This document shows positions 41,312 to 62,887 of a DNA stretch of 64,000 bases, piece after piece. The notes under the pieces were generated by a model that was not told the origin of the DNA, ran no database searches, and saw only the letters and a program-made list of their open reading frames with translations. The stretch spans positions 186,001 to 250,000 of the forward strand of contig JALCCG010000004.1 in NCBI GenBank assembly GCA_023212695.1, in the 5' to 3' direction. The position numbers and the translations under genes are program-made. Source of the stretch: Sporisorium sorghi (taxonomy: Eukaryota > Basidiomycota > Ustilaginomycetes > Ustilaginales > Ustilaginaceae). The number at the start of each line of letters is the position of its first letter. Position 1 is the first letter of the stretch.

Positions 41312-41540
41312 GAACCCACCGCTTCCTTCTTATCATATTCATGGTTTACAGTGATACCATATGTCATTTCGGATCGAAATGTACCTTAAATCTTACCCCA
41401 ATTTACCTTTGTCTTCAATAAGGACGCCGCTGTAGAGCCCTCCTCTTACTTTGTTCATGCAATTGTAGGACTCTTGTGCTATTCGTCAAACGTGGGTAGT
41501 TTATACTATAATGAGTGCGCATAGTAAAGGAGAATATCAC

Positions 41541-42638
41541 GTGAATGACAACATACATCCATCTGAACTTATCAAGTCGGCGGAACAATTTATCGGGCTC
41601 TGTTATGCAGAACTAAACCGGACTCAGGAAGAAGCGGAATCCCGGCTCATGGACATCCGCTCACAGATCGAGCTCACAGGTACATATGAGCATACGTCAG
41701 AGGAGCTGACGCACGGAGCCAAAATGGCCTGGCGAAACAGCAACCGCTGCATCGGCAGATTATTCTGGGATCGGCTCAAAGTAACCGATGCCAGACACTT
41801 GAGCAAGACTTCTGACGTCTTTTCGGAGCTTATCCGGCATATCGAGAATGCCACCAATGGCGGAAAGATCGTACCGACCATTACGATTTTCAAACCATCC
41901 CGTCCAGGTGAACCCCCGCTCACGATCAAAAACCATCAATTAATACGATATGCGGGCTACGAAACGCCTGACGGTACAGTAGGTGACCCGGCTTCCATAT
42001 CCTTCACGAAGGAATGCATGGAGCTTGGGTGGCAAGGTGATTTGACCCATCATGATGTCCTGCCGCTCGTTGTTCAGCAAGGCAACGAACCGCCGGAATG
42101 GCTGTCGATTCCACACTCCTCTGTACTGGAGGTTTCCTTGGAGCATCCGGAACTGCCGGACCTTATCGACCAGGAGTTAAAATGGTACGGGGTGCCCATC
42201 ATATCGGATATGCTGCTGGAGATCGGCGGAATTATGTATACGGCCGCCCCGTTTAATGGCTGGTATATGGGAACCGAGATTGGAGCCCGCAACTTGGCAG
42301 ATAAGGAACGTTACAACAAACTTCCGCTTATTGCCGAGCTTATGGGGCAGGATACGTCCAGCGAATCCACCTTGTGGCGGGATCGCGCACTGGTTGAACT
42401 GAATTATGCCGTGCTCTATTCCTTCAAAAAAGCAGGCGTCAGCATCGTAGATCACCATACGGCGGCGACCCAGTTCGGCTTGTTTGAACGACGGGAAGAG
42501 CAGGCGAAGCGTGAGCTTACCGGGGATTGGAGCTGGTTGATCCCTCCAGTCTCACCAGCGACAACGCATATTTTTCATAAATCCTATAATAACGAAATCC
42601 GTTCGCCGTATTTTCATTACAGGAACAAGGGGCAGTAA
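41541..42638 (+). CDS. nos: Nitric oxide synthase oxygenase
   Basis: 365 residues, the usual bacterial NOS length. It oxidises L-arginine to nitric oxide and citrulline using an external reductase. The heme-ligating Cys is in [14 protein letters not shown] (about residue 61). The Arg-binding region is [19 protein letters not shown] ([15 protein letters not shown], about 235-249), and [21 protein letters not shown] gives the pterin side. There is no reductase domain, as expected for bacteria. The start is GTG 41541 with AAAGGAG 8 nt upstream; an ATG at 41511 overlaps that site. Own terminator. Confidence 0.96.
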
Positions 42639-44837: not shown

Positions 44838-46255
44838 TCATGAACTTAAACGGTTTAGCATGTTCTGGGCAATCCATATGCCCGCCGCCCCGGCTTGAGC
44901 AAGTCCCCTCGTAATTCCGGCTCCATCGCCACCACAGAATAGACCCTTGATCTCCGTCTCGAAGGACTCCGTCAGCTTCGGCCGAGCGGAGTAGAACTTC
45001 GCCTCTACCCCGTAGAACAGTGTGTGCTCGGATGCAATGCCCGGCGTGACTTTATCCAGCGCTTCAACCATCTCAATCAGGCTCTTCATCGTGTTGTAGG
45101 GCAGAACCAAGCCCAGATCTCCGGGGACTGCTTCCTGAAGAGTCGGCTCCAGAAAACCTTCGCGGATTCTGCCTTCGGTTGATCTTCGGCCGCGCAGCAC
45201 GTCTCCGTATTTCTGTACAATAACACCGCCGCTGGATAAATCATTAGCCCGCTTGCAGATTTCCCGCGCGTATTCGTTAGGCTTGTCAAACGGCTCCGTG
45301 AACTTATGGGATACCAGCAGCGCAAAGTTCGTATTGGCCGAGCCCAATGCCGGATCTTTATAGGAATGGCCGTTGGCTGCCATCACACCGCTGTGGTTCT
45401 CAACGACAACATGACCCGAAGGATTGCTGCAGAACGTTCTCACGCGGGTTCCAACCGAGGTATTAAAGATGAATTTGCCTTCATACAAGTGCTCATTAAT
45501 TTCTCTCATGACCACGTCGGAGGTTTCAACACGCACGCCCACATCCACTTGGTTGTTATGCATTTTCAATCTACGTTTTTTTAATATGCTGGTCAACCAG
45601 GCAGAGCCGTCTCGTCCCGGGGCAACCATAACCAAATTCGCCTCATGAACCTCTCCGCCCTTCATTGCAATGCCGGTAACGCGGTACGTTCCGTCTTCTT
45701 TGACGGTAACCAGATCCTCTACCTCTGCCCGGAAGGCCATATCAATCCTGGTCTTCAAATATTCGTAGATCGATTTCAGAATCTCCAAATTTTGTTCGGT
45801 TCCAAGATGTCTTACCTGAGCGCGAAGCAGCTTAAGTCCTGCCGCATATCCTCGCTGCTCAATATCCCGAATCGCATTTGTGGTTGGATCCGTAATCGCC
45901 GGTGTCGCTCCATGCTCCCGATTAATGTCTGCCGGCTTGCTCGATTACGGCTGGTTTTGGCGGAGCTGGGGCATACAGTGACGGCAAATTCAACATAACG
46001 ACAGAGTTTGGCGGCTGGATGACTGATTATTTGCCTGGCTCCAAGGTAATGGAGCTTATTCAATACGTGGATGCATATGGCTGGCGGACAGAGCTTGATT
46101 TTCTCCTCCAGAATCGGGCAGCTTCTCCGGTAAATATCATGCCCCTTGTCCACCAGCAGCACCTTGCTGCCCGGTGATTTCAATGTCAGTTCATAACACG
46201 CGAATATTCCCGCCGGTCCGGCGCCAACCACGATAACATCATATTTGCTCATCAT
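44838..46255 (-). pseudogene. FAD-dependent dehydrogenase (COG2509 type), disrupted by internal inversion
   Basis: The 5' part (46255-46091) encodes the dinucleotide-binding start SKYDVIVVGAGPAGIFACYE to EEKIKLCPP. The 3' part (from 45929 down to 44838) encodes DINREHGATPAITDPTTNAI through the C-terminal GDGAGITRGLAQAGAAGIW. The expected middle, CLPACSITAGFGGAGAYSDG and on to YVDA, is found only on the plus strand (45926-46075). The result on the minus strand is a truncated frame ending at 45812. About eight codons at the first junction also seem lost. The downstream part keeps an open frame of 316 codons, so decay is recent. The family is an oxidoreductase of unknown substrate. Confidence 0.9.
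45926..46090. other. Inverted segment with imperfect inverted repeats at its ends
   Basis: TGTCTGCCGGC (45926-45936) and GCTGGCGGACA (46080-46090) are inverted copies with 9 of 11 matches. The 143 bp between them read in the opposite direction from the rest of the gene. Flipping the segment at these repeats would join the first part in frame (KLCLPAC) but leave a frameshift at the far junction (after VDAYGWR), so the present state is not a clean two-way switch. Confidence 0.85.
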
Positions 46256-46301
46256 ATCCCCCTGTGTGTTTGACTGTACTCTTGCACACCGACTCCAGGC
46301 A

Positions 46302-46356
46302 CAAAAAAATCCTGCTTCGAATAGGTATGCTTGCGCATCCTACTCGTAGTCAGGAA
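46302..46356 (-). terminator. Riboswitch expression-platform terminator
   Basis: Minus strand: GAGTAGGATGC-GCAA-GCATACCTATTC forms the inner stem and TCCTG/CAGGA the outer one, followed by seven T. The 5' strand of the stem includes the aptamer's P1 and P3 3' strands, so aptamer folding and termination compete. Confidence 0.8.
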
Positions 46357-46408
46357 TTTAAGGTCCCTTGTAGAAACCCCTGAACCTTATTATCAGGGAT
46401 ATACGAAT
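46342..46408 (-). promoter_or_regulatory. Purine riboswitch aptamer, guanine type by sequence
   Basis: On the minus strand P1 is ATTCGTA/TACGAGT. P2 is CCCTGA/TCAGGG with loop containing ATAATAAGG. The J2/3 segment is GTTTCTAC, P3 carries the loop ACCTTAAA, and J3/1 is GACTACG. The loops can kiss through AAGG/CCTT. The J3/1 base that pairs with the ligand (position 74 in B. subtilis xpt numbering) is C, which specifies guanine or hypoxanthine rather than adenine. J1/2 is one or two bases shorter than in xpt. It controls the FAD dehydrogenase gene at 46255. Confidence 0.85.
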
Positions 46409-46438
46409 AAGCATCATCCAACTTCAACAACCACAGTT

Positions 46439-46467
46439 AATATAAACTCTAATTACGAATATGTCAA
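46439..46467 (-). promoter_or_regulatory. Promoter of the riboswitch-controlled gene
   Basis: Minus strand: TTGACA (46462-46467), 17-bp spacer, TATATT (46439-46444). Start near 46432, about 25 nt before the aptamer. Confidence 0.8.
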
Positions 46468-46657
46468 ACATAATAATATTTATCGTTCGTGTTTTAAGCA
46501 TAAACAAATAATAAATACTGATATAAAATAATATAATGACTAAAAGACGAACAATAACATCTGTAAACAAATTGTTAAACCAGGACTTTCAGACGATTAC
46601 ACTGCCCTTACAAATCACGTAACAACGAAATGGAAACAAATGTTTAACGATTGGCTA

Positions 46658-46687
46658 TTGAAAAGTGAGTGTCGAATATTGTAGTAT
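46658..46687 (+). promoter_or_regulatory. Possible promoter of the double-HTH gene
   Basis: TTGAAA (46658-46663), 18-bp spacer, TAGTAT (46682-46687). The rest of 46470-46657 is AT-rich DNA in which I see no gene. Confidence 0.45.
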
Positions 46688-46711
46688 TGTGTTAAAAAAA
46701 TCGGAGGAATT

Positions 46712-47314
46712 ATGCCTACACAACTGCAGCAAGAAAAACACTCCATAGAGGCGTGGTCCCTGATCAATCGTAAATATTTGGGGAAAGGTGTGCGAGTCAA
46801 GCGCTTTCGCCGGCCGACCCGCTGCCAAATTCGTAACCGCGTCCTGCTAGCCATACTTATGGCCAACGACATCAAGCTGTCACAATTGGCCGAAGAACTG
46901 GGAGTATCCTCCCGTAGTGTCAGTGCCTGGGTGTATGAGGGACGCGTTCCCGGAAAAAACAACCTGGAGAAAGCCTGCAGCTACTTGGGTTATCCCCGTC
47001 ATATCCTCTTCAGAGAAGAACTGCTGGAGAAATCACCATTGATCTGTCAGCCTGCACCTTCCCGCTTCATGAAACGCACCCTGACACGTTCTCCGGTCAG
47101 CAATCGGATTCTGACAGGCCTGTGCATGGTTCATGATTTGTCGGTAAGCGATGTCAGCCGCTGGATCGGCGTCCATCCCGGCACGTTCCGCAAATGGCTG
47201 CATCAAGGCACCGTACCATCCGCGGCATTTCAGGAAAAAGCGGAACAGTTCTTCCGTATCCCTAAATCTGTTCTGTTCGCAGATTGCGCATTGAAGCAAG
47301 ATTCTCCTAAATGA
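46712..47314 (+). CDS. Double helix-turn-helix DNA-binding protein
   Basis: 200 residues with an internal duplication of about 65 residues. Copy 1 (about 42-105) reads IRNRVLLAILMANDIKLSQL, then ELGVSSRSVSAWVYEGRVPG and YLGYPRHILF. Copy 2 (about 130-192) reads VSNRILTGLCMVHDLSVSDV, then WIGVHPGTFRKWLHQGTVPS and FFRIPKSVLF. Each copy looks like an XRE/phage-repressor HTH. It could bind two half-sites as a monomer. The basic N-terminus (KRFRRPTR) may add DNA contacts. GGAGG precedes the ATG. No family name is recognised; neighbours give no clue to its target. Confidence 0.75.
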   Translation: MPTQLQQEKHSIEAWSLINRKYLGKGVRVKRFRRPTRCQIRNRVLLAILMANDIKLSQLAEELGVSSRSVSAWVYEGRVPGKNNLEKACSYLGYPRHILFREELLEKSPLICQPAPSRFMKRTLTRSPVSNRILTGLCMVHDLSVSDVSRWIGVHPGTFRKWLHQGTVPSAAFQEKAEQFFRIPKSVLFADCALKQDSPK

Positions 47315-47360
47315 AGTTATCATGATTTTTAATAACCATACTTAAGATGACGAACCAAAC

Positions 47361-47405
47361 GCCCAGCAGGCCGGATTTGATCCAGCTTGGCTGGGCTTAT
47401 TTTTT
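47361..47405 (+). terminator. Terminator
   Basis: GCCCAGC and GCTGGGC form the outer stem, followed by TTATTTTTT. Confidence 0.85.
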
Positions 47406-47484
47406 GTTAAGGCATATTTGGAAGAGATCAGGGAATACAAGTAACATCGAGAATCGCGGCATCCAGAATGGAGGTGACTCACGC

Positions 47485-47676
47485 ATGAATTTGCGCCATA
47501 AGGAAATTGGCGGGGCATTGGGATTATTGGCCGGAACTACGATGGGCAGCGGCATCGGATTTCTGATAGGCTGGCACTCTTACGATCTGATAGTTCTGGT
47601 TGCCTTCTTCGGTTTATTCGGAATTACAGCCGGGCGGTGGGCTGGCTCCCGCATTGTATTCAAAGAGTTTCCGTAA
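47485..47676 (+). CDS. Small membrane protein, two helices
   Basis: 63 residues. Two Gly-rich hydrophobic helices (GGALGLLAGTTMGSGIGFLIGW and LIVLVAFFGLFGITAGRWAG) with GxxxG-type packing. Family not recognised. GGAGG lies about 10 nt before the ATG at 47485; the frame upstream is unrelated to it and contains the terminator stem. Confidence 0.7.
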   Translation: MNLRHKEIGGALGLLAGTTMGSGIGFLIGWHSYDLIVLVAFFGLFGITAGRWAGSRIVFKEFP

Positions 47677-47737
47677 ACGTAAAAATCAATTGCCAAGCTC
47701 CACATTCTAAACCCCCCTGCCCCAGATGCAGTGCAGC

Positions 47738-47785
47738 AAAAAAGCAGACCAGGAAACCATTCGCTTCCCCATCTGCTTTTTCTCA
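47738..47785. terminator. Bidirectional terminator
   Basis: AAAAAAGCAGA and TCTGCTTTTT, with T-runs in both directions, between the converging 63-residue gene and the lipoprotein gene. Confidence 0.8.
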
Positions 47786-47820
47786 TTTTGAGAAAACCCT
47801 CACCGGCGGTTTTTCACAAT

Positions 47821-48519
47821 TCAAAGCGATTTATCATCCATCGGCTCCCCTGCATAGCCCGTTGAATACTCATGAAAATAATCCTCGCCCAAGGTTGTAT
47901 CCGGTATATCCATTTCGCTCCAGGTCTTGCCTCCATCCTCTGTTATGGCCTGACCACTGAATCCACTTTCTGGTGATATAAAATGGAGAAAATCCCCATT
48001 CGGCGTGCTTCCAATCCGGTCCCATGTCTGCCCGCCATTGGTTGTGCGGTAGAGATCGTTATTCTCCATAACGGTCCAAGCCTGCTTGTCGTTCAGTGCA
48101 AAGATTTGACGTACGGTTCCCTTCAGCTGAGCTTGAACCTCCCATTCCGTACCACCGTTATCACTATATGCAATCCAGCCTTCTCCGCCTATCCATCCCG
48201 TTTTATGATTAACCAGCCTGACTGCCGTCACATCCGCTAAATCCACATCGGGCTGTAAGGCCGAAGCTTTCTGGTCATTCGTATGATTCTGTTCTGCATC
48301 GGCACTATGATCTCCGGCGTCATCAGCTTCACCCGCAGCATGATTCGAGTTGGCAGGAGATTCTCCCTCAGGGTTAGCTCTGTTCGGAGCATTCGGGGAT
48401 TGCTCCGGCACCGGAGCTTGGGCCCCATCCCCTCCATCCGATGGCTGGCAGCCTGCAACCAGGCCCACAACGATAAGCAGCAGTAAAATAAAGCCAAACC
48501 CGATTCGAGGTTTTATCAT
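47821..48519 (-). CDS. Lipoprotein with YCF48/BNR-type Asp-box repeats
   Basis: 232 residues. A lipoprotein signal peptide with lipobox VAGC (Cys near residue 24) is followed by a low-complexity Asn/Pro/Ala/Glu linker to about residue 90. Three Asp-box elements follow: SDNGGTEW, TTNGGQTW and TEDGGKTW, the turns of a beta-propeller. A full propeller needs more blades, so this is either a partial propeller or associates with another protein. It is probably anchored on the outer face of the membrane. Own terminator. Confidence 0.78.
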   Translation of the reverse strand: MIKPRIGFGFILLLLIVVGLVAGCQPSDGGDGAQAPVPEQSPNAPNRANPEGESPANSNHAAGEADDAGDHSADAEQNHTNDQKASALQPDVDLADVTAVRLVNHKTGWIGGEGWIAYSDNGGTEWEVQAQLKGTVRQIFALNDKQAWTVMENNDLYRTTNGGQTWDRIGSTPNGDFLHFISPESGFSGQAITEDGGKTWSEMDIPDTTLGEDYFHEYSTGYAGEPMDDKSL

Positions 48520-48664
48520 ATGATCACACCCCTTGCATTCAAAGTATTAATCGGCTACAACGGTTAACGGGTCCTCTATACTATATATCCAACTCCATCA
48601 ATTTCACCCAAATGAAGAACACACTCTCATCTTTAGTATAACGCGATTTCTCTCTGAATAGGAA

Positions 48665-48712
48665 CGAAAAAAGCTGCTCTTCAAGTAGAAATTCACTTGA
48701 AAAACAGCTTAA
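48665..48712 (-). terminator. Terminator of tRNA-Leu
   Basis: Minus strand: AAGCTG, CAAGT and ACTTG, CAGCTT form a stem, followed by TTTTTT, just after the tRNA 3' end. Confidence 0.85.
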
Positions 48713-48721
48713 GTTCTTGGA

Positions 48722-48752
<31 letters not shown>

Positions 48753-48805
48753 GTTAGCCCACACGGACCTGAACCGTGCGCGTCTGCCAATTCCGCCACG
48801 ACCGC
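48722..48805 (-). tRNA. tRNA-Leu, anticodon CAG
   Basis: 84 nt with the long variable arm of leucine tRNAs. Acceptor GCGGTCG pairs with CGACCGC. The anticodon stem-loop is CACGG-TTCAGGT-CCGTG, giving anticodon CAG (reads CUG). The T arm contains GGTTCGAGTCC. The discriminator is A and the CCA end is not encoded (the next bases are TCC). It stands alone with its own terminator. Confidence 0.96.
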
Positions 48806-49090
48806 GTATTATGTAAGCCGGTGTTGTGTTGATCACCGTAATTAAGAGTATATTACGCCAGAAGTTAAAAAGCAAGCATTATTTTTTAGGAAAATGTCGA
48901 AACCGGATATTCCGCATAATTTCAACATTTCAACCCGGCGCCAGATCGTCCATTGGTCAAGAATGATTCTGGAGAATACCCTCGTTTACTCATCCTCCAC
49001 AGGGTATGTTTATTCGAGAAACCCCTCATACTAAAGTAACCAAGCTCTGGAACCTGTAGTATATACTTTACGAAGTGCGAGGACATAACG

Positions 49091-49327
49091 ATGTATATGA
49101 AGAAATATGGAATCACCTTCCTGATGGGCTCACTCTGTCTTGCCTTCACCGTAATCACCGACATCCTGTTCGGTTTCCCATGGACTAACTTTATCATCAA
49201 TTGGAAATTCACGCTGTTCTCCATTGTAGAAAAATGGACTGTTATCCTGCTGCTGATCTTATTGTTCGTTCCGGATGTATATCAATTCTTCAAAAAGAAA
49301 AAGTCCCGACATGCAAGCCAATCCTAA
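49091..49327 (+). CDS. Small membrane protein, two helices
   Basis: 78 residues. Helices at about 8-27 and 45-66, with a basic C-terminus (FFKKKKSRHASQS). No family recognised. GAGG lies 8 nt before the ATG. The upstream 285 bp (48806-49090) contain the tRNA promoter region and nothing else I can name. Confidence 0.65.
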   Translation: MYMKKYGITFLMGSLCLAFTVITDILFGFPWTNFIINWKFTLFSIVEKWTVILLLILLFVPDVYQFFKKKKSRHASQS

Positions 49328-49365
49328 TCCTCTTATAATAGGATGTGGCTCACGAAGCGGGACTT
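49302..49365 (-). terminator. Terminator of the ger operon
   Basis: Minus strand: AAGTCCCG and CGGGACTT form the outer arms around CATCCTATTATAAGGATTAGG-type arms, followed by TTTTTCTTTTT. It overlaps the end of the 78-residue gene. Confidence 0.7.
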
Positions 49366-50492
49366 GAATTGGAATTAGGTTCGGATTTGGATCTGGATTT
49401 CATCCTCCGTACCAGGATGCGGATCATCCCCAGAATAACCAAGACAGCAGGAATGACAATCGTGAATACAGGGAGCACGGTATACAGATACTTGCTCCCT
49501 TTCATAAGATGTTCGCTATAGGAGCGCGACAGAACCATCGAATTCCCCAGTATGATTACAGCATAGGGATAGATTAGTTTTTTGTACGGAATCTTAAACA
49601 GCTCCGATGTGCACATCAGCGCCGCATAATAATACAATCTTATTTTGAAAAACACGCCAATGATTAATACCATCACCACGAGTATTTCTGTTCGCTCGAT
49701 AAACTCGGAAATATTGGCCTTGCCGACCATGGTAAGCAGCGGAAATACCGAACGCTCGGTAATATTCGTTCCCAGCACTGAAATGGTAATGGCTGAGGTC
49801 TGCGCCAGCATGACACCGCAAAATAATATCGCCAAATAACCGGCCTTAATCCCTGTTTTCTTCTGATTCAAGGCAGGCATTAAGACTGTAGCAACAATAA
49901 GCTCCGCGAATGGAAAGTGAATGTTTTTCTCCACTACGGATTTCATGATCGGCCCCGTGCCTTCTCCCATCACAGGCAGCAAACGCTGCAGGTCCACAAT
50001 CCCGGCAAACAGGATGACCAACAAGCTAAACCCTCCGATAATCAATACGACGGCTAAGAAGATCAGCGCAGTACGGGCGAGCACCTCAATCCCTTTGCCC
50101 AGCACATACGCAACCGTCATCACCATGATAAGATTTACGATAAGCAGGGGAGTCTCCTTCAGCGCTGCCGATGCCATCACCAGAAGTCCTCCGTCAACAA
50201 CATCTCTGGAAGCCGTATGCAAGTAGAACACACCGTACGACAATCCGACAAATCCCCCTAAATATTTCCCGAGCAATATTCGGTAATATACAGTCGGAAG
50301 TTTATCGGGAAACAAGGAGTAGAGAAAAGCGTTCATTGAGAAAAGCAGCAGACCCATGATCATGCCGATCAGCATCGCGATCCATGAATCCTTACCGGCT
50401 TGCAATCCAAGATTCACGACAAGCGTGGTTCCAAATTGAAACAGGACCAACAGTGAGAAGAATTGGAGCGGACTAATTCTCACCTTCTCCAT
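49350..50492 (-). CDS. Spore germination receptor permease subunit (GerB type)
   Basis: 380 residues with about ten transmembrane helices, a member of the APC-like spore permease family (GerAB type). It starts KVRISPLQFFSLLVLFQFGTTLVVN, with SKDVVDGGLLVMASAALKETP (family-conserved region at about 95-118). It senses amino acids or other nutrients in the spore inner membrane with its A and C partners. Last gene of the operon; AGGAGG precedes the ATG. Confidence 0.92.
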   Translation of the reverse strand: MEKVRISPLQFFSLLVLFQFGTTLVVNLGLQAGKDSWIAMLIGMIMGLLLFSMNAFLYSLFPDKLPTVYYRILLGKYLGGFVGLSYGVFYLHTASRDVVDGGLLVMASAALKETPLLIVNLIMVMTVAYVLGKGIEVLARTALIFLAVVLIIGGFSLLVILFAGIVDLQRLLPVMGEGTGPIMKSVVEKNIHFPFAELIVATVLMPALNQKKTGIKAGYLAILFCGVMLAQTSAITISVLGTNITERSVFPLLTMVGKANISEFIERTEILVVMVLIIGVFFKIRLYYYAALMCTSELFKIPYKKLIYPYAVIILGNSMVLSRSYSEHLMKGSKYLYTVLPVFTIVIPAVLVILGMIRILVRRMKSRSKSEPNSNSSPAS

Positions 50493-50509
50493 ACGGCTCC
50501 TCCTTTTCG

Positions 50510-51724
50510 TTACTCGATGTGGATGTCGTGTTTAAAGGAACGATCTCTCATCTGTGAATTTCGCACGACCGAGTTCACTTGGTATTCAACCTGAATTCGC
50601 GGATAAATCACATCCCAGCGGTCTTTCAATTCCCGCCAGACCGCCGGTTTGGTCCGTTCGATTACGTGACTGAATCCCAAAATGTCACTATCCAATTTTT
50701 TGCTTTTTTCTACTGCTTTTTTCAAAATTCGCACAACCTCTTTGTTGACAGCCTCTTCAAGAATCTTCATCGTATGAGGGTCCCTCAGATCAATACTGCT
50801 GTTCACTTCCCGGATCGAGAGGTTCGGCTCAACAAAAATTCGAATGATTGGCTGCAGCGGATCCTGAAGTTCGGCTTCAATTCGGGTCTTGGAGCGCATG
50901 ACATCGAAAGCGACTTCACCTTGTCCATTTTCAAGTTTGATATGCAATGGCGTTTTTTGCATTTTATCCCTGATCCACACGGTCCCGCGGCTCTCTTCCT
51001 TCGTCATCCAGCCCTTGAGTTTTCCGCCTTTGAAAACAGCCAGATTGGAGATGACGGCTAACCCGTCGCTCTTCGCACTCTCCAAATTCGATTTCTTAGC
51101 TGCCCCCTCTTTGCTCCCTTCGATAATGACACCATTGATAATCGGTCCACCTCCAGGCGTAAGCATCCCCCGGATAACATCATCCACTTCAACCCGAAAG
51201 TTCTCGCTTAACTGTCTGGAGGTCAGATCGATCTTCTGTGCCAATGCGAAGGCTGTAATCTTCCCGATAGGAGTCAATACAGCGACAACCTCCTCGGCCC
51301 GCTGCCCCTTCCCGGCAACCAGAATTTCAGCTGTCAACCTGATATCGGAATCCCGATCCAGATAATCAAACAAATCGACGATGCCGTTCCTCGCGACATC
51401 ATCGGATATGACAATTAAGCCCGTATGCGCCAGCGATATAATTCGCGGTACTTTTCGGGATGTATTGCGCATCGCTTCAATAACGGTTTTACCGGATGCT
51501 TGGTAGACTGATGTCGGTGTGGCCCCTCTTCCTGCTTTTCCGGAGATCTCATCGGCAACCACTGTTTGAAAAGAGATCAAGTACTGACTCTTGCTCTCCA
51601 TCCAATCGATACCGATCCCGGATACGATCGCCCGCCGGTTTAACTCCACCGCATCCCAGCAGCCGGTCATCATGGCAAGGCAGCAGCCAAGCACAAGGAA
51701 GGCAAACCATCTGTGTTTCAACAT
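50510..51724 (-). CDS. Spore germination receptor lipoprotein (GerC type)
   Basis: 404 residues. Signal peptide with lipobox MTGC (Cys near residue 22), then WDAVELNRRAIVSGIGIDW typical of Ger(x)C. The C-terminal domain (about 260-395, with LEEAVNKEVVRILKKAVEKSKKLDSDILGF) is the conserved Ger(x)C part. It is anchored to the outer leaflet of the spore inner membrane. It lies 16 bp after the A gene and 17 bp before the B gene. Confidence 0.92.
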   Translation of the reverse strand: MLKHRWFAFLVLGCCLAMMTGCWDAVELNRRAIVSGIGIDWMESKSQYLISFQTVVADEISGKAGRGATPTSVYQASGKTVIEAMRNTSRKVPRIISLAHTGLIVISDDVARNGIVDLFDYLDRDSDIRLTAEILVAGKGQRAEEVVAVLTPIGKITAFALAQKIDLTSRQLSENFRVEVDDVIRGMLTPGGGPIINGVIIEGSKEGAAKKSNLESAKSDGLAVISNLAVFKGGKLKGWMTKEESRGTVWIRDKMQKTPLHIKLENGQGEVAFDVMRSKTRIEAELQDPLQPIIRIFVEPNLSIREVNSSIDLRDPHTMKILEEAVNKEVVRILKKAVEKSKKLDSDILGFSHVIERTKPAVWRELKDRWDVIYPRIQVEYQVNSVVRNSQMRDRSFKHDIHIE

Positions 51725-51739
51725 ATCTCATGATCGCTC

Positions 51740-53431
51740 CTAACCTGAGTTACGATTCCCCTCGGCACTGGGAGCGACGGCATGCTGATTGCTGCCCCCG
51801 CCCCCTCTCTCGCTGCCGTTGTTCTGTTCTGCAGTGCCCGAACCGGCCCCGATGCCTTGCTGTGTCGATGAACGGTTTCCCTGCTTGCCAGATCCGGAAG
51901 CCGAAGCGGTGAGAGTAGCAGACTGAAGCGTTTTAAAGGGCATCCGCAGGACGGCATCCTTCTGGCTCTTGTACCGAAACGGGCTTATGGGCGCCAGGTA
52001 AGGTTCACCGAAGGAACGGAGACTGTTCATATGCGCAACAAGCACGATTAATCCCAAGGTGAGCCCATAAAAGCCAAACATGCCTGAGAGCACCATAAAA
52101 CCAAACCGGATCAATCGGCCTGCAATGGACAAGTTGTACGCCGGTATCGCAAAGCTTGCGATACCGGTCAGGGCGACAACGATGACCATCGCAGGCGTAA
52201 TCAGTCCAGCCTCTACCACTGCCTGTCCCAGGATCAAAGCACCCACAACCGAAACGGTTTGCCCGATGGCTCTCGGCATCCTCACGCCGGCTTCCCGCAG
52301 TATTTCAAAAACAATCTCCATGAGCATTGCTTCAACAAAAGCAGGGAAAGGCACACCTTCCCGCTGAGCTACCAAACTAATCAGCAATAAGGTTGGTACC
52401 ATCTCATAGTGAAACGTAGTGAGTGCAATGTACACCGACGGGCCCAAGATCAAAATAATGAAGCAAAGATAGCGGACAATCCGCATCACAATGGCAATAT
52501 CAAATCGCTGTGCATAGTCTTCCGGCGACTGAAAGAAATGAACGAATACCGTTGGGAGCACCAGGACAAATGGCGTTCCGTCAACCAAAACGATAATGCG
52601 TCCCTCCAGCAATTTTCCAGCTGCGTCATCGGGACGCTCCGTATTATAGATCGTCGGAAACGGCGTCACCGTTTTGTCCTGAATAAATTCTTCAATGTAT
52701 GCGGACTCCAGAATCCCTTCAATTTTGATTCCGTGTATCCGTTCTTTGATTTCTTTCACAATCTCAGGATCTGCCTTCCCCTTAACGTACATAATCGCCA
52801 CATGCGTATGGGTTACCGAACCGATCTTCATCGTCTCCAGCCACAGATCAGGAGATTTCATCCGCCGCCGGATCAAGGATATATTCGTGGCAATGGACTC
52901 TACAAAGCTGTCTTTCGGGCCCCGGACAACAAGCTGTGAAGTCGGCTCCGTCACAGACCGCCACTCGCCACCCTGCGTACCAGCTACGATGGCTTTTTCC
53001 GACCCTTCGATCAGGATGGCGGTATCGCCAGACAGTATGGCAAGCATAATATCATTCCACTCGGTCATGGTCCTGGATTCACCCATCGCCAGCCCATCCT
53101 CCATGATCCGCTTCAGCATGGCTTCAGGGTCTTCTTTATTCAATAGGTCAGGATTTACATGCAGCAGGGATTCCATCACAAAATGGTTGACCATTTGGGG
53201 ATCGCTAAGCCCGTTCAGATAAACGATGGCGCAATTATCCTCAGGCTGACCGCCCAGTTTCAAACGGCGGATAACGATATCCGGGCTGTCTCCGGATTCA
53301 GTTCGTATACGAGCCAGTTGTTTTTCCATATTGCCCGAAATTACGGATGGCCTCGTCTTCGAGGATAGCTCCAGTTCCTCTGAATCCTTCTTTGGAGCTT
53401 TACGGCGGTTACGAGATCGGTAGCCTATCAT
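51740..53431 (-). CDS. Spore germination receptor subunit A (GerA type)
   Basis: 563 residues. A large N-terminal soluble domain (VIRRLKLGGQPEDNCAIVYLNGL, VRGPKDSFVESIATNISLIRRR, TVTPFPTIYNTERPD) precedes five transmembrane helices (about 290-480, including GRIIVLVDGTPFVLVLPTVF). The C-terminal 60 residues are low-complexity Ser/Gly/Asn. It is the GerA/SpoVAF family subunit. ATG 53429-53431 has GATGAGG upstream; a TTG seven codons earlier lacks spacing. First gene of an A-C-B operon. Confidence 0.93.
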   Translation of the reverse strand: MIGYRSRNRRKAPKKDSEELELSSKTRPSVISGNMEKQLARIRTESGDSPDIVIRRLKLGGQPEDNCAIVYLNGLSDPQMVNHFVMESLLHVNPDLLNKEDPEAMLKRIMEDGLAMGESRTMTEWNDIMLAILSGDTAILIEGSEKAIVAGTQGGEWRSVTEPTSQLVVRGPKDSFVESIATNISLIRRRMKSPDLWLETMKIGSVTHTHVAIMYVKGKADPEIVKEIKERIHGIKIEGILESAYIEEFIQDKTVTPFPTIYNTERPDDAAGKLLEGRIIVLVDGTPFVLVLPTVFVHFFQSPEDYAQRFDIAIVMRIVRYLCFIILILGPSVYIALTTFHYEMVPTLLLISLVAQREGVPFPAFVEAMLMEIVFEILREAGVRMPRAIGQTVSVVGALILGQAVVEAGLITPAMVIVVALTGIASFAIPAYNLSIAGRLIRFGFMVLSGMFGFYGLTLGLIVLVAHMNSLRSFGEPYLAPISPFRYKSQKDAVLRMPFKTLQSATLTASASGSGKQGNRSSTQQGIGAGSGTAEQNNGSERGGGGSNQHAVAPSAEGNRNSG

Positions 53432-53575
53432 GTTGGTATCCTCATCCTTCAAAACTCAAGTTATCTCCATTATTTGCTTTACATTCCTATTTCATGCGGA
53501 GGGCAAAGAGGAATTCAGATACGGAGCGAAGAATTGTCTATGCATGAAGACTATATTCACAGGGAGGATACTATT

Positions 53576-54259
53576 TTGAAGCGTTACGGGTTGCCATTGG
53601 TCATCCTGATCATGAGCGTCATTTACATTTTCTTGATTCCATCTGAGCCATTAGCGGTCAAACTGCTGTTCAAGCTGATTCCGATGTGGCTCATCATACT
53701 CTTTGCTTATTGGCAATTTCCGCCATATAAATCAAAGGTTCATTATCTTCTGGTGATAGGGTTGTTCTTCTGTATGATTGGTGATGGAACACTGATCTGG
53801 TTCGTGGTCGGTCTCACCGCCTTTCTGATTGGACATCTGTTCTATGCGGCCGGCTTCCTCACACAATGGCGCTACTCGCTCCTCCGTTTCCTCAGCATCG
53901 TTCCAATCGCAATCTACTCGTTATTCATGGGCAGCGAATTGGTGTCTTCGATTAAGGCCAATGGAGATCACGGCTTGATTATTCCGGTTATCGCTTATAT
54001 CACGGTCATTTCACTTATGCTCTGGTCGGCCATCATGACCGGGAACCGGTGGGCGATGCTCGGGAGCCTGCTGTTTGTCATCTCGGATTCGATCCTGTCC
54101 TGGAACATGTTTGTTTCAGATATTCGCTACTCCGGCGTGTGGATCATGACAACCTATTACGCCGCCCAATTTCTCATTGCACGCAGCATTGCAGCCTTCG
54201 ATAGTCCTCACATGCAATCCGCAAGCAGCGCAGCCCTTAACACATCGGTTTTTAAATAG
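53576..54259 (+). CDS. Lysoplasmalogenase-family (YhhN) membrane protein
   Basis: 227 residues with about eight transmembrane helices. The motifs IGDGTLIW (about 75-82), FLIGHLFYAAGF (about 89-100) and FVISDSILSWNMF (about 180-192) match the YhhN/TMEM86 family, which hydrolyse the vinyl ether of lysoplasmalogens or act as related lipid enzymes. The start is TTG 53576, with GGGAGG exactly 8 nt upstream; the in-frame ATG at 53540 has a weaker site. Confidence 0.82.
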   Translation: MKRYGLPLVILIMSVIYIFLIPSEPLAVKLLFKLIPMWLIILFAYWQFPPYKSKVHYLLVIGLFFCMIGDGTLIWFVVGLTAFLIGHLFYAAGFLTQWRYSLLRFLSIVPIAIYSLFMGSELVSSIKANGDHGLIIPVIAYITVISLMLWSAIMTGNRWAMLGSLLFVISDSILSWNMFVSDIRYSGVWIMTTYYAAQFLIARSIAAFDSPHMQSASSAALNTSVFK

Positions 54260-54270
54260 AACACAAAACA

Positions 54271-54310
54271 AGCTGAGCCCGGGTCCATCTTGCACCCGGG
54301 CTCAGCCCTG
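54271..54310 (+). terminator. Terminator
   Basis: GCTGAGCCCGGGT and ACCCGGGCTCAGC form a 13-bp stem; the T-run after it is poor. Confidence 0.65.
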
Positions 54311-54362
54311 TTATCATTCATTACTTTATTCTATTAAGGACCTAACTGGTACCGGCCCCTCT

Positions 54363-55076
54363 TTAATCCCGCCAATTCATGCGTACCTGCTTAATTCCCT
54401 CAACCTGCCACAGCTGCTCGAACAATCCGTTAATTCCCTTGCTGTTAAACGAATAGACCCGGAATTCCATCGTCACCTTGGTTGAATCATCTTCCAATGT
54501 ATCGTTGTTGACGATCATGCCTTCAACGGTCATGTTCGCCCTTTGCAGCAAATCGGTAATGGTGCTGACATGAACCGGACGGTCCCCGGTCTCAATCATG
54601 ATTTTTAGGCTGCCGGATTTCTTAATAAAGAGAAACCTCGATTCCAGTTTATTCAGCACCAGCGTGCTGACCAGAACAATCGCCGTTGTTATGATCGCTG
54701 GCCAATAAAACCCGGAACCAACACTTAAACCAATAGCCGCCGCTACCCATAAGGTTGCCGCCGTGGTGAGACCTGAAATGATATGATTCGAACGCCGCAG
54801 GATAGCCCCGGCTCCAAGAAAACCGATACCGCTTACAACTTGTGCGGCCAGCCGGGCAGGATCAAACCTCGCATTGGGATGATTGATCAGGGCTGAATCA
54901 AACCCGTAAATGGAAGTCAGCATAATCAGCGTTGATCCGACGGCCACCAAGAGATGCGTTTTTAGACCGGCCTGCTTGTTTCTGCGTTCGCGCTCCCAAC
55001 CGATTAAACCGCCAAGCAGCGCAGCAAATAACAGCCGCATCAGCATGGTCCCTGTATCCAGTTGAAACACATCCAT
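54363..55076 (-). CDS. MgtC/SapB-family membrane protein
   Basis: 237 residues. Four or five N-terminal transmembrane helices carry the MgtC core LLGGLIGWERERRNKQAGLKTH and AQVVSGIGFLGAGAIL (about 85-100). A C-terminal ACT-like regulatory domain follows (about 150-235). It is related to proteins linked with magnesium and phosphate homeostasis. GGAG precedes the ATG. Confidence 0.92.
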   Translation of the reverse strand: MDVFQLDTGTMLMRLLFAALLGGLIGWERERRNKQAGLKTHLLVAVGSTLIMLTSIYGFDSALINHPNARFDPARLAAQVVSGIGFLGAGAILRRSNHIISGLTTAATLWVAAAIGLSVGSGFYWPAIITTAIVLVSTLVLNKLESRFLFIKKSGSLKIMIETGDRPVHVSTITDLLQRANMTVEGMIVNNDTLEDDSTKVTMEFRVYSFNSKGINGLFEQLWQVEGIKQVRMNWRD

Positions 55077-55118
55077 TCCTAATCTCCACCCATCCTTGTC
55101 ATTTAAGGCGGCTCTTCG

Positions 55119-55724
55119 TTATGCCATATGTTCATCCTGCCAGCGCCATAACTCTTTGCTGGAGGTGGATATGCCGATTACACCGCTCTTCAGAGCTGTA
55201 TCAAAATCCTCCAAATCGATCATGAGTCCCCCCGCGATGACAGGCACGTCCACCTCGGCACGAATACGGCCCATAATACGCTGACATACCATGCCCGGCA
55301 GAACTTCGATTGCGTCCGGATTGGAGGCCTTAATCATCTTGATTCCGTTATCCAGTGAGACGGAGTCAAATACAAACAGACGCTGAACTGTCAACAAGCC
55401 CAATTTTTTTGCTTCCACGATCGCTGTGTTTTTTGTTGTAACGATTCCGTCAATACCTGCCTTCTCGGCTAAATACCTGACTCCCGTCTTGTCTTTGCCG
55501 ATTCCTTCAATGAGATCAAAATGAACAAATGAGAGCTTGCCAGCCTCAGAAATCTGCTCGACAATCGATTCAATCATAAAGATATCGGTCTTGAGAATAA
55601 AAACGATATTCGATTCGGTTGCCAGCACGGCGGGCAGTTCTTCGGCATGCATTAATGATGTGATAATGGGCCTTCGCTTCAAACAATACGAAATTCGTTG
55701 TGCACCTTCTACACTGGTTCTCAT
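55119..55724 (-). CDS. glpP: Glycerol uptake operon antiterminator
   Basis: 201 residues, the usual GlpP length. It is an RNA-binding TIM-barrel protein that, with glycerol 3-phosphate, prevents termination in leaders of glp genes. Seen are KRRPIITSLMHAEELP, FVHFDLIEGIGKD and VLPGMVCQRIMGRIRAEVDVPVIAGGLI-type (AGGLMIDLEDF). ATG 55722-55724 follows GAGGTG. It is 66 bp downstream of a HAD phosphatase gene on the same strand, and a leader resembling that of glpD precedes the pair. Confidence 0.92.
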   Translation of the reverse strand: MRTSVEGAQRISYCLKRRPIITSLMHAEELPAVLATESNIVFILKTDIFMIESIVEQISEAGKLSFVHFDLIEGIGKDKTGVRYLAEKAGIDGIVTTKNTAIVEAKKLGLLTVQRLFVFDSVSLDNGIKMIKASNPDAIEVLPGMVCQRIMGRIRAEVDVPVIAGGLMIDLEDFDTALKSGVIGISTSSKELWRWQDEHMA

Positions 55725-55790
55725 GTCTTCACCTCGTTGCCGCAGCAGCATCTCCAATTCTCCCGTTGCCCCGGCATATTTTTATATCCA

Positions 55791-56603
55791 TCATGACTTT
55801 GCTTCATCTGCCTGCTCCAAGGCATGACCTGCGAGATAAATATCGTGGACCGAATTCAGGACGTAGGTAGGCGTAACGCTGCTGCCGATCAGGTCATCCC
55901 TGCCCGACACGCCAGTCAGCACCAATGCCGTACTCATTCCCGCCTCGTTTCCCATCCGAATATCCGTCTCAAGCCGATCCCCTGACATCAGGCATGCTTC
56001 CGCTTTCACTCCCAAAATATCAAGTGCCGTCAATGCCGTCAAGACGGAGGGCTTGCCCATGACAGTCGTAATTCGGATGCCCGCTGTACCTTCGATGGCA
56101 CCAATCATGCCGCCACAATCGGGAATATCCCCGCCGGGCATGGGACATGTTCGATCCGGATGGGTTGCAATAACATCGGCGCCGTGTTTAATTGCCTGAT
56201 ATGCGAAATCCAGATGCCGATAGTGAAACTCCCGATCCCACGAAACGACCACAACGTCGGTTTCCTCCGGCGTAGATGCGAATGAAATTCCGTTATCCAG
56301 CAGTTCATTCTTCAATATGTCCTCACCGATCACGTAGACCTGTGCACCCGGATGATGCTTCTGAAGATAATGGATCGTAACGAGTGCAGGGTTCAATATA
56401 TGCTTCAGTTCTACCTCAATGCCAAGCTTCGCTAATTTCTTCAGATAATTTTCTCTGGAATCAATCGTTTTGTTAGTTAAAAACAACAGCTTCTTATCCA
56501 GCCCCTGCAAATAGTGAATGGTCTCAACAGCCCCATCAATCGCCTCGGCCCCCAGATAGATCGTACCATCCAAATCAAAAATATAACCTGAAAAATGATC
56601 CAT
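55791..56603 (-). CDS. HAD-IIA phosphatase (NagD/AraL-like)
   Basis: 270 residues. HAD motif I FDLDGTIYLG (about 9-18), motif II LFLTNKT, the class IIA cap (about 80-180), motif III lysine in VMGKPS (about 190) and motif IV MSGDRLETDI (about 215-224). The family includes phosphatases acting on sugar phosphates, nucleotides and glycerol 3-phosphate. Its place before glpP behind a GlpP-type leader suggests glycerol 3-phosphate phosphatase, an inference only. ATG 56601-56603 follows GAGGAG. Confidence 0.88.
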   Translation of the reverse strand: MDHFSGYIFDLDGTIYLGAEAIDGAVETIHYLQGLDKKLLFLTNKTIDSRENYLKKLAKLGIEVELKHILNPALVTIHYLQKHHPGAQVYVIGEDILKNELLDNGISFASTPEETDVVVVSWDREFHYRHLDFAYQAIKHGADVIATHPDRTCPMPGGDIPDCGGMIGAIEGTAGIRITTVMGKPSVLTALTALDILGVKAEACLMSGDRLETDIRMGNEAGMSTALVLTGVSGRDDLIGSSVTPTYVLNSVHDIYLAGHALEQADEAKS

Positions 56604-56767
56604 TGTCGTTCTCCTCTGCATGTTCAATCTGTAACTTCCGCCTGCAAACGTAAATGGGACATGTTCTGGTCAGATCAGTTCTGTTATGCAATCACAGCCC
56701 CCATCCGTATGTATACATATGACAGCACCATTCCCTTTAGTCCTTGGACAAGCGATCGTACGGATAT

Positions 56768-56859
56768 AAAAAAAAAGAGAAACACTTCGCATTAAAAACG
56801 CTTTCATCCATGACAAATGAAAGGTTCGTTATGCAAAGGGCTTCTCATCATCTCTGCCC
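56768..56859 (-). promoter_or_regulatory. GlpP-type leader with terminator, upstream of the HAD phosphatase-glpP genes
   Basis: On the minus strand the 27-nt conserved block at 56833-56859 (GGGCAGAGAT, then GATGAGAA and CCCTTTGC) is followed by CTTTCAT/ATGAAAG and TTTGCAT/ATGCGAA arms, closed by GAGAA/TTCTC and nine T (56768-56776). The block is nearly identical to that in the glpD leader. The same structure would also stop transcripts of glpD, whose end lies just upstream. Confidence 0.65.
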
Positions 56860-56881
56860 AGCTCTATAACTTCATATGGTT

Positions 56882-56910
56882 ATACTACATCCAGCTTTTA
56901 CATTTGACAA
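56882..56910 (-). promoter_or_regulatory. Promoter of the HAD phosphatase-glpP operon
   Basis: Minus strand: TTGTCA (56905-56910), 17-bp spacer, TAGTAT (56882-56887), start near 56875. It lies between the glpD stop and the leader, so this operon has its own start. Confidence 0.6.
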
Positions 56911-56928
56911 GATGATAATAATTCAGAA

Positions 56929-58692
56929 TTATCGAATCACGGCTGAGATGGTGGGAGAATCCTCCTCTTTCTCTTGGGTGTCCACCATTTCTACATGTTC
57001 CCTACCCAAAGGATACGGAAACAGCTCCGTCCTGTCGCCTGCAGGAGCCCCCCATGCCAACTGCAATTGATCCTGCAGCAGCTCCAGTTGTCTGTCAACT
57101 TCCTCTTGACTCCATTCTAAATAATCCTTCATTATCTCGATTACAGGAGCGATTAACCTCTCGGCCCTTGGCCGGTCAAACAGTACCCAGCCCGTTCTTC
57201 TTAGCAGAAAATCAACAGCGGTTATTGTCATCTCATGTTCTATGGAGTACTGGATTTCTGCTCGCAGCACTCTAATTTCCATCGATTCCGACGCCTGCGA
57301 AGCAGCATGAATCCGATGAAGCAGCTCTTTTGTATTAGAGCCGTATCGGGTCATCAAGCCCAGCATGAGCTCCGACGGGATGCCAAGCGATTTCCCCTGC
57401 TTAACCAGCATTTCTCGCAATTCCTCATAAGTAAGACCATTCAGCTCTCCGCCGCTTATCGGTACCCGGTCTGTTGTACAAGGAGGATAGATGGTGCCAT
57501 CTGCCTCTTGAAGCTGTCTGGCAGCCAGGTTCACAACCTTCTCGGCCATTTTCCGAAATCCGGTCAGCTTTCCGCCTGCAATGGTAATCAATCCAGAATC
57601 GGATACAACCATTTCGTCCTTTCCGGATATCTCCGAGGGCCCCTTCCCTTCCTCGCGCACGAGAGGACGAAGTCCAGACCAGCCCGCTTCGATATCGCTT
57701 ATCTTCAAATGGACATCCGGGAAAGCATGACGAACCGCATCAAGGAGATACCGCCGATCTTCAGCGGTAACGCCCGGCGTCTCCGTTGCACCTTCGTATA
57801 CGGTATCGGTTGTTCCGATGTAGGTCTTGCCCTCCCTGGGAATAACGAATATCATTCGGCCACCGGGCACATCAAAATAAGCAGCTTGTCGTATCGGGAG
57901 CTTCGCATGATCCACCACCAGGTGAACGCCCTTGGTGAATAATAATGACCTGCCTTTCAGCGAATTGTCCTTCTGCCTGACCTGATCTGCCCATAGACCG
58001 GTTGCATTCACGATTTTTTTGGCGAATACCTCATAGGTTTCCCCGCTCCATTGATCCTCCACGTGAGCACCTACCACTCTTCCCCCGCGATAAATAAATG
58101 CGCATACTTTAGCGTAATTCGCGATCAGCGCTCCCCTGGCCCGTGCAGACTTCATCACTTCAACCGTTAGCCGTGCATCATCGGTGCGATATTCGTAATA
58201 ATAACCGCAGCCTCGTAACCCCTCCTTACGAAGGAGCGGCTCCAGCGCTAGGGTTCCCTCGCGTCGGAACATGGTCACCCGCTCACTGCCCTTGACCCCC
58301 GCCAGCCATTCATGCAGATACAATCCGATGGCTCTGGCCAAATAACCGTAGGTGCCTTTCTTATAAATAGGCATTAGCATCGGAATCGGCTCCACAAGAT
58401 GCGGAGCGCTCCGGTGAAGCAGCGCCCGCTCGTAGCCTGCTTCACGTACCAAGCCAAGCTCTCCCTGCCGCAAATACCGGAGACCGGCATGGATCAGCTT
58501 CGTCGATCTGCTGCTTGTTCCCGAAGCCAAATCGCCCATCTCGACCAAACCGACGGCCATCCCCCTGCAGCTGGCGTCCCAAGCAATTCCCGCACCCGTG
58601 ATACCGCCGCCAATCACCAGCACATCCAGCTTGCTAGCCGACATGTCCTGCAAATATTGGGTCCGCATCCTAGCGGATAAGCTTGTGCCCAC
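56929..58692 (-). CDS. glpD: Aerobic glycerol-3-phosphate dehydrogenase
   Basis: 587 residues, slightly longer than B. subtilis GlpD. A membrane-associated flavoprotein that oxidises glycerol 3-phosphate to dihydroxyacetone phosphate and passes electrons to menaquinone. FAD site VLVIGGGITGAGIAWDASCRG (about 25-45), then GTSSRSTKLIHAGLRYL, IPREGKTYIGTTDTVYEG and GLRPLVREEGKGPSEISGKD. The start is GTG 58690-58692 after GGGAGGGG. Its leader carries a GlpP-type terminator. Confidence 0.95.
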   Translation of the reverse strand: MGTSLSARMRTQYLQDMSASKLDVLVIGGGITGAGIAWDASCRGMAVGLVEMGDLASGTSSRSTKLIHAGLRYLRQGELGLVREAGYERALLHRSAPHLVEPIPMLMPIYKKGTYGYLARAIGLYLHEWLAGVKGSERVTMFRREGTLALEPLLRKEGLRGCGYYYEYRTDDARLTVEVMKSARARGALIANYAKVCAFIYRGGRVVGAHVEDQWSGETYEVFAKKIVNATGLWADQVRQKDNSLKGRSLLFTKGVHLVVDHAKLPIRQAAYFDVPGGRMIFVIPREGKTYIGTTDTVYEGATETPGVTAEDRRYLLDAVRHAFPDVHLKISDIEAGWSGLRPLVREEGKGPSEISGKDEMVVSDSGLITIAGGKLTGFRKMAEKVVNLAARQLQEADGTIYPPCTTDRVPISGGELNGLTYEELREMLVKQGKSLGIPSELMLGLMTRYGSNTKELLHRIHAASQASESMEIRVLRAEIQYSIEHEMTITAVDFLLRRTGWVLFDRPRAERLIAPVIEIMKDYLEWSQEEVDRQLELLQDQLQLAWGAPAGDRTELFPYPLGREHVEMVDTQEKEEDSPTISAVIR

Positions 58693-58736
58693 CTGACATT
58701 CCCCTCCCTGAATCTATTAAGAAAAACGTATAAATC

Positions 58737-58816
58737 TAAAAAAGAACCGCATCTGCTGAATGCATACTGAAATACAGTACGCATTGAAGCAAAAGGGTTC
58801 TCCATGATCTCTGCCC
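58737..58816 (-). promoter_or_regulatory. GlpP-responsive leader and terminator of glpD
   Basis: Minus strand: the conserved block at 58789-58816 (GGGCAGAGAT, then CATGGAGAA and CCCTTTTGC), followed by AATGCGTACTG/CAGTATGCATT as inner stem and AGAACC/GGTTCT as outer stem, then TTTTTT. B. subtilis glpD has an equivalent leader terminator that GlpP with glycerol 3-phosphate overcomes. Confidence 0.8.
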
Positions 58817-58841
58817 GTTTATGCAATAAATATGATTATTC

Positions 58842-58870
58842 ATTATATGTTGCTTTTATGCTTATGTCTA
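58842..58870 (-). promoter_or_regulatory. Promoter of glpD
   Basis: Minus strand: TAGACA (58865-58870), 17-bp spacer, TATAAT (58842-58847). The leader is about 140 nt and contains the GlpP terminator. Confidence 0.7.
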
Positions 58871-58906
58871 CATAGAACCTGTTATTAGAACTTTGCAGGT
58901 CTAATG

Positions 58907-59764
58907 TCATTTTTTTCGTAAAGCCGATGGAGCCATTCGCTTATATTTCTTGAAGGTCCGGCTGAAATAATAAATATCGTTGAATCCGGTAGCAGCCGCA
59001 ATTTCCGATACCGTAAGCGGACTTTCGCGGAGCAGGTAATCCGCCCGGTTAAGCCTGGTTTCATTCACGTACTCCGTCACGGTCCGGCCGCTGATCTCCT
59101 TGAACAATCGGCTGAAATGAAATCGGCTGAGACCGGCCATGCCGGATAACAGCTCCACGGACAGATCGTCCCGGTAATGCTCTTCAATGTATTTGAATAT
59201 CGGCGCAAACCGCTCCACATTTTTCATTCGCTCCACGTATTCGTCCTGTGTGAGAACCGTGGCGACATAACCTCGCAGCAGCAGCGTAAGCAGCCGGTAC
59301 AGCTCCGATTTGATGGCCAGCTCATAGCCGAATTCCTGCCGTTCCAGCTCCTTGATAATGGATAGCATGGGTGCCAGCGCATCATCCCCGTTGATTCGGT
59401 TCTCGAAGATCAGACGGTTCTGGGTGATCGGTGTGATGAATTTCATCTCGGGCGCATCCAGGGAATGGCTCTGCAGCAGCGAGAAATCAGCGATTAACGC
59501 ATAATAAAACAAATGTTCCGACTGGCTGAGCCCGTAATGCAGTTCATTCCGGTTAATGACGATCATATCGCCTTCCTTGGCGGTGAAGGTGGACGATCCG
59601 CATTCCAGCGTCGCTTCCCCCGAAACAAAATACAGAATTTCAAGATGCTCATGCCAATGATGGTTAAATAAAACCTGTCCCCGGCCATCAAACTCGCAAC
59701 GATGAACCTTGATTGGAAACTGAGGATCCGGCATCGTCATCGGTTCTCGCAGTGTTTTGTCCAA
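58907..59764 (-). CDS. AraC-family transcriptional regulator
   Basis: 285 residues. An N-terminal cupin sensor domain (HHWHEHLEILYFVSGEATLECG, then EGDMIVINRNELHYG, about 25-75) precedes two C-terminal HTH motifs (about 180-280: LSVELLSGMAGLSRFHFSRLFKEISG and VSEIAAATGFNDIYYFSRTFKKYKRMAP). The start is TTG 59762-59764 with AAGGAG 9 nt upstream; other in-frame starts are less well placed. It is divergent from the dehydrogenase-isomerase operon and probably activates it in response to a sugar. Confidence 0.88.
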   Translation of the reverse strand: MDKTLREPMTMPDPQFPIKVHRCEFDGRGQVLFNHHWHEHLEILYFVSGEATLECGSSTFTAKEGDMIVINRNELHYGLSQSEHLFYYALIADFSLLQSHSLDAPEMKFITPITQNRLIFENRINGDDALAPMLSIIKELERQEFGYELAIKSELYRLLTLLLRGYVATVLTQDEYVERMKNVERFAPIFKYIEEHYRDDLSVELLSGMAGLSRFHFSRLFKEISGRTVTEYVNETRLNRADYLLRESPLTVSEIAAATGFNDIYYFSRTFKKYKRMAPSALRKK

Positions 59765-61803: not shown

Positions 61804-61841
61804 TTCAGACGCACGATGGATGATATAAGGAGGATATAACG

Positions 61842-62862: not shown

Positions 62863-62887
62863 ATTCATGCCATGTTGATGAACTTAG

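What the first reader, a model, noticed from the sequence alone, without database searches (positions are those of the whole stretch)
44838..46255. Small intragenic inversion splits a FAD dehydrogenase gene
Both ends of one conserved protein are encoded on the minus strand (46255-46091 and 45929-44838), but its conserved middle, including GFGGAGAYSDGKF, is encoded on the plus strand at 45926-46075. The borders are an imperfect inverted repeat (TGTCTGCCGGC and GCTGGCGGACA, 9 of 11). The ends remain intact, so the event is recent. Flipping at these repeats restores only the first junction; the second stays frameshifted and some codons look lost. It could be an inversion by template switching, a decayed invertible element, or an assembly artefact. 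Gene finders would report two unrelated short genes and miss this.
Basis: partly seen in the sequence, partly recalled or inferred. Interest (0 to 1): 0.8.

Follow-up and report, generated by a model that had tools for sequence, protein, structure and literature searches.

The report
Small flipped segment breaks bacterial gene
In a stretch of Paenibacillus DNA, about 150 letters in the middle of a flavin-enzyme gene are turned around and about 20 neighbouring letters are lost, which breaks the gene; this looks like a one-off accident of copying or repair (or of sequencing), not a genetic switch.

Summary
Against Paenibacillus glucanolyticus NBRC 15330 the 64-kb window is colinear at 99.0-99.6% identity, with one inverted block: 150 bp (window 45925-46074) align on the opposite strand. 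In 80 of 80 relatives kept, the gene is one full-length frame in the ordinary order. Compared with the reference, 150 bp are inverted, 20 bp are missing at one border, one base is gained there, and 3 bp (CAT) are shared at the other border, a net loss of 22 bp; turning the segment back would not restore the frame. An invertible element is not supported. Best reading: a one-time, homology-poor microinversion, by double template switching or by end joining. An assembly or amplification chimera is not excluded: the window lies in a 23-Mb assembly with eukaryote-like actins, so the contig is probably a contaminant, and no reads are held. Side result: a purine riboswitch precedes this gene in the window and in 22 of 22 relatives scanned.

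The parts
46076..46255 (-). 5' part of the FAD dehydrogenase gene, residues 1-60 of 479
   Evidence: 100% identical to residues 1-60 of the reference protein; Rossmann FAD-binding start
46075..46075 (.). left junction: one base without counterpart in the reference; reference 96630-96649 (20 nt) is missing here
45925..46074 (+). inverted block, residues 68-117 on the plus strand
   Evidence: 149 of 150 bases identical to reference 96650-96799 in opposite orientation; residues 68-117 at 100%
45925..45927 (.). right junction: 3-bp overlap (CAT) fitting both the inverted block and the right flank
   Evidence: overlap of the blast blocks, exact extension
44838..45927 (-). 3' part of the gene, residues 118-479 and stop; C-terminal domain FAD-depend_C
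   Evidence: 98.9% identical to residues 118-479; PF21688
45812..46255 (-). 147-aa ORF now open across the left junction: the native start followed by an unrelated tail read from the inverted block
   Evidence: none of 80 listed homologues shares the tail as far as coverage and the eight sequences read show
46327..46426 (-). purine riboswitch aptamer, 71 nt upstream of the gene's start
   Evidence: Rfam RF00167, 69.7 bits against a cut-off of 37; distance

Best explanation
A one-time, irreversible, homology-poor microinversion in a strain of Paenibacillus glucanolyticus or a very near relative. About 150 bp inside an uncharacterised FAD-dependent dehydrogenase gene were copied or rejoined in reverse, with loss of 20 bp at one border, gain of one base there and a 3-bp microhomology at the other border. 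The gene no longer has its conserved PACS...GFGGAGAYSDGKF region on the coding strand and is a pseudogene. Shown: order of blocks, breakpoints, losses, unrearranged state in relatives. Inferred: the mechanism. I favour two successive polymerase template switches (MMBIR-like) over religation of a fragment between two breaks, roughly 3 to 2, and cannot separate them. The confidence is for a real one-off microinversion of either kind.
For: Colinear reference with one inverted block. 80 of 80 relatives have the ordinary order. No second copy of the middle or of the gene in the own assembly. Short junction homology on one side, deletion and one-base gain on the other. The rest of the 64 kb looks accurate: 13 indels, 53 of 57 mechanically chosen reference ORFs of at least 100 aa intact. 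Recent: 13 synonymous and 4 non-synonymous codon differences in the alignable parts.
Against: No reads and no second isolate with the same junctions (searches found none). Template switching as described for microinversions goes with flanking inverted repeats (PMC8755829); none abuts the breakpoints here. End joining needs Ku: the reference has it, but in the window's assembly the search found only two Ku matches, in frames of 795 and 861 aa, none of the bacterial size. Contamination context favours artefacts.
Confidence: 0.7

Rival explanations
1. Assembly or amplification artefact: a chimeric molecule or local misassembly put a reversed 150-bp piece into the consensus, and the living strain has an intact gene.
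For: The window sits in a 23.2-Mb, 469-contig assembly with eukaryote-like actin, so the bacterial contigs are probably contaminants, possibly of low depth. Part of the reference is not seen in it at high identity: of reference 50001-70000 only the first 8.8 kb matched at 99%, and no bacterial-size Ku was found. MDA chimeras are mostly inversions with intervening deletions, 406 of 475, often with short junction homology (PMC1855051).
Against: Two junctions must close in place; a single chimera gives one. The rest of the 64 kb shows no other inverted block and few frame-breaking differences; nor does the 8.8-kb stretch of another contig.
Confidence: 0.25
2. Double-strand breaks on both sides of the segment and end joining in reverse (Ku-type or alternative end joining), with trimming of one end. 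This is a sub-reading of the best explanation, not a rival to its reality.
For: Trimming, one-base gain and 3-bp homology suit end joining; the reference genome has a Ku gene.
Against: Needs two breaks about 170 bp apart and retention of the fragment. No bacterial-size Ku found in the window's assembly, which may be incomplete.
Confidence: 0.27
3. Site-specific invertible element (intragenic inverton), active or decayed.
For: 9-of-11 inverted 11-mers at the ends in the window (finding). Intragenic inversions are a described class (Chanin et al. 2024, seen only as a reference entry).
Against: The 11-mers are direct repeats in the reference; net loss of 22 bp; one orientation in 80 of 80 relatives; no recombinase domain in the eight neighbouring ORFs scanned, one of which has helix-turn-helix hits including a weak HTH_Tnp_1.
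Confidence: 0.03

Closest known systems
Microinversions attributed to template switching or microhomology-mediated break-induced replication (human-chimpanzee set, PMC8755829; abstract and part 1 of the Discussion read)
   Same: Short segment replaced by its own reverse complement, copied precisely
   Different: Those 59 are 17-33 nt and all flanked by inverted repeats abutting the ends; this one is 150 bp, bacterial, has a 20-nt loss and no abutting inverted repeat
Intragenic invertons (Chanin et al. 2024; reference entry only)
   Same: DNA inverted inside a bacterial gene, altering the encoded protein
   Different: No inverted repeats in the unrearranged gene, bases lost, no second orientation seen
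MDA chimeras (PMC1855051; abstract and passages read)
   Same: Inverted joining, intervening deletion, short junction homology
   Different: A chimera is one junction in one molecule; here two junctions close the segment in place inside a 64-kb colinear contig

Membership tests
Site-specific invertible element (inverton) | Inverted repeats at both ends, present in either orientation | tested here: not met
   Both 11-mers are on one strand in the reference; longest exact inverted arms within 45 bp of both breakpoints are 6 bp and do not abut them
Site-specific invertible element (inverton) | Conservative exchange, no bases lost | tested here: not met
   20 nt lost, 1 gained, 3-bp overlap
Site-specific invertible element (inverton) | Both orientations occur | tested here: inconclusive
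   One orientation in 80 of 80 relatives; no reads of the source strain
Site-specific invertible element (inverton) | Recombinase encoded in the genome or nearby | tested here: inconclusive
   None in eight neighbouring ORFs; the rest of the genome was not searched for one
Inverted-repeat-guided template-switch microinversion | Inverted repeats abutting the ends in the unrearranged sequence | tested here: not met
   best inverted 11-mer between reference ends 7 of 11
Homology-poor microinversion (MMBIR-like or end joining) | 0-few bp homology, small gains or losses at the junctions | tested here: met
Homology-poor microinversion (MMBIR-like or end joining) | Present in the living strain | not testable with these tools
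   no reads held

The most novel reading that the evidence does not exclude
A natural bacterial intragenic microinversion that needs no inverted repeats, made by double microhomology-mediated template switching. Searches that look for inverted repeats and ordinary gene finders would both miss such events, so they could be an uncounted source of gene loss between strains.
Probability: 0.4. Interest if true: 0.35.

Novelty: new member of a known kind. Interest (0 to 1): 0.22.

Why it matters
If real, it is a clean recent example of a small complex rearrangement in a bacterium, readable to the base because a relative at about 99% identity has the unrearranged gene. It also carries a caution: inverted repeats at the ends of a flipped segment can be made by the flip itself, so the unrearranged relative must be checked before an invertible element is called.

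Tried and rejected
Invertible element at the 9-of-11 repeat: rejected, the repeats are direct in the reference.

Second copy of the gene or a donor for the middle in the same assembly: none found.

Another carrier of the rearrangement: one search listed 80 proteins for the 147-aa ORF; 79 cover at most 52% of it (the inverted tail starts near 41%). I read eight: P0002, P0003, P0035 and P0010, P0028, P0039, P0063, P0066; none has the tail. P0035 (84% covered, 43% identity) keeps the ordinary order up to PACS and then differs. The other 72 were judged by coverage alone. (200 genomes asked, 100 searched, 75 matched, row list cut): no listed row crosses a junction by more than a few bases. I did not tally strands for all; in G001, G002, G033, G046 and G066 the middle is on the strand opposite to the flanks, the ordinary order.

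Other inversions in the assembly: not scored; one search showed one 8.8-kb match without break and no near-identical match for the rest of the query.

Ribosomal RNA search to name the host organism failed. RpoB search failed.

A regular expression for the riboswitch found 6 of 80 but missed aptamers that Rfam finds in the same loci; too strict, not used.

Papers: searches for bacterial microinversions and template switching, read as listings only, listed no bacterial case of this size in the titles shown; this is no proof of absence. 'Short-patch double illegitimate recombination' (recalled) gave 0 papers.

Full report
What is there. On the minus strand, window 46255-46076 encodes residues 1-60 and 45927-44838 residues 118-479 of a 479-residue FAD-dependent dehydrogenase; residues 68-117 are read on the plus strand. 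The protein has a Rossmann-type start and Pfam PF21688, FAD-depend_C. No NCBIfam model reaches its cut-off on the pieces. It is an uncharacterised flavoprotein.

The reference. The nearest relative found is P. glucanolyticus NBRC 15330 (C-terminal part 99% identical). I fetched 310 kb of its contig and compared it with the window. Window 1-45927 and 46076-64000 match one colinear reference stretch (142705-96800 and 96629-78728) at 99.6 and 99.0%. Between them, 45925-46074 matches 96650-96799 on the opposite strand, 149 of 150 identical. One further match is at a tRNA gene. P. lautus (L003) and two further relatives looked at (L004, L005) show the same three-block relation at lower identity. 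Of 251 stretches encoding a relative, 80 were kept; in 80 of 80 tblastn of the intact protein gives one full-length frame on one strand without stops. So the window has the derived state.

Anatomy of the event. Reference 96630-96649 (20 nt) is missing; window base 46075 has no counterpart; the inverted block and the right flank share three bases (45925-45927). Between the flanks 170 bp became 148, a net loss of 22. Intact copies exist in relatives.

The inverted repeat is a by-product. The two 11-mers of the finding stand at 96615 and 96651 in the reference, on the same strand, 36 bp apart, one on each side of the left breakpoint. Inversion carried the second to the far end, where it now looks inverted. 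Had recombination used inverted repeats, they would be inverted in the reference too. The longest exact inverted arms within 45 bp of both reference breakpoints are 6 bp and do not abut them.

Age. In the alignable codons 13 differ synonymously and 4 non-synonymously. This is a pattern of purifying selection, so most differences probably predate the inversion. Both end pieces are still open.

Mechanism. A deletion and one-base gain at one border and a 3-bp overlap at the other fit two template switches of a replication or repair polymerase, or end joining of a fragment between two breaks. The reference genome carries Ku, so end joining is available to the species; but in the window's assembly the two Ku matches lie in frames of 795 and 861 aa, not of the bacterial size. 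A substitution at 45919, close to the right junction, would suit error-prone switching, but its kilobase holds 14 substitutions, so it may be ordinary. I favour template switching modestly. A published set of 59 microinversions of 17-33 nt had flanking inverted repeats in all cases (PMC8755829, abstract and part 1 of the Discussion read), which this one lacks.

Artefact. The window lies in a 23.2-Mb assembly of 469 contigs with an actin match of 374 aa covering 393 of 410 profile positions (bacterial controls also ring weakly or strongly with this family, so the eukaryote reading rests on size and score) and one full-length bacterial DnaA on another contig. The Paenibacillus contigs are probably a contaminant; the host was not identified. 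Only the first 8.8 kb of reference 50001-70000 matched at 99%. MDA chimeras have an inversion-with-deletion signature (PMC1855051, abstract and passages read). Against an artefact: the rest of the 64 kb has no other inverted block, 275 substitutions and 13 indels, and 53 of 57 reference ORFs intact; besides this gene the broken ones sit at an 8-bp tandem duplication, an 11-bp loss near an ORF start and a 32-bp insertion.

Side result. A purine riboswitch aptamer lies 71 nt upstream of the gene in the window (distance). It also lies on the gene's strand before the gene in 9 of 9 and 13 of 13 relatives scanned (22 of the 80 loci were given), 45-175 nt before the start in 21 and 689 nt before it in one, L064. 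The base of the last junction that I take as position 74 is C in the window and in all 22, the guanine-type base; the alignment of this position is mine, and that C74 contacts guanine is in a passage of PMC9295807. That paper has no occurrence of 'FAD' (passages only). This points to a purine-linked role for an uncharacterised flavoenzyme.

Verdict. A real feature of the sequence, recent, of a known kind; not a switch; its biological reality is likely but needs reads.

Noticed in passing
46327-46426 minus; also 22 related loci: A purine (guanine-type) riboswitch precedes an uncharacterised FAD-dependent dehydrogenase in the window and in 22 of 22 relatives scanned, Paenibacillus, Brevibacillus and one record named Anoxybacillus; a lead to the enzyme's role in purine metabolism.
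   Followed up: partly
whole window (G000:C417:186001-250000): Paenibacillus DNA inside a 23-Mb assembly with eukaryote-like actin genes: probably a bacterial contaminant.
   Followed up: partly
4001-16000: No substitution against the reference in 12 kb, against about 7 per kb over much of the rest: recent recombination or common descent of this tract.
   Followed up: no
around 37089: An 8-bp tandem duplication breaks the frame of a 214-residue reference ORF.
   Followed up: no
P0002 and P0003: Truncated relatives on contigs of 240 and 713 kb that lose the frame near the same two places (after PACSIT, after IQYV). The search favours short proteins, so this may mean nothing.
   Followed up: no
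41511-42638 plus: Bacterial nitric oxide synthase, oxygenase domain (PF02898).
   Followed up: no
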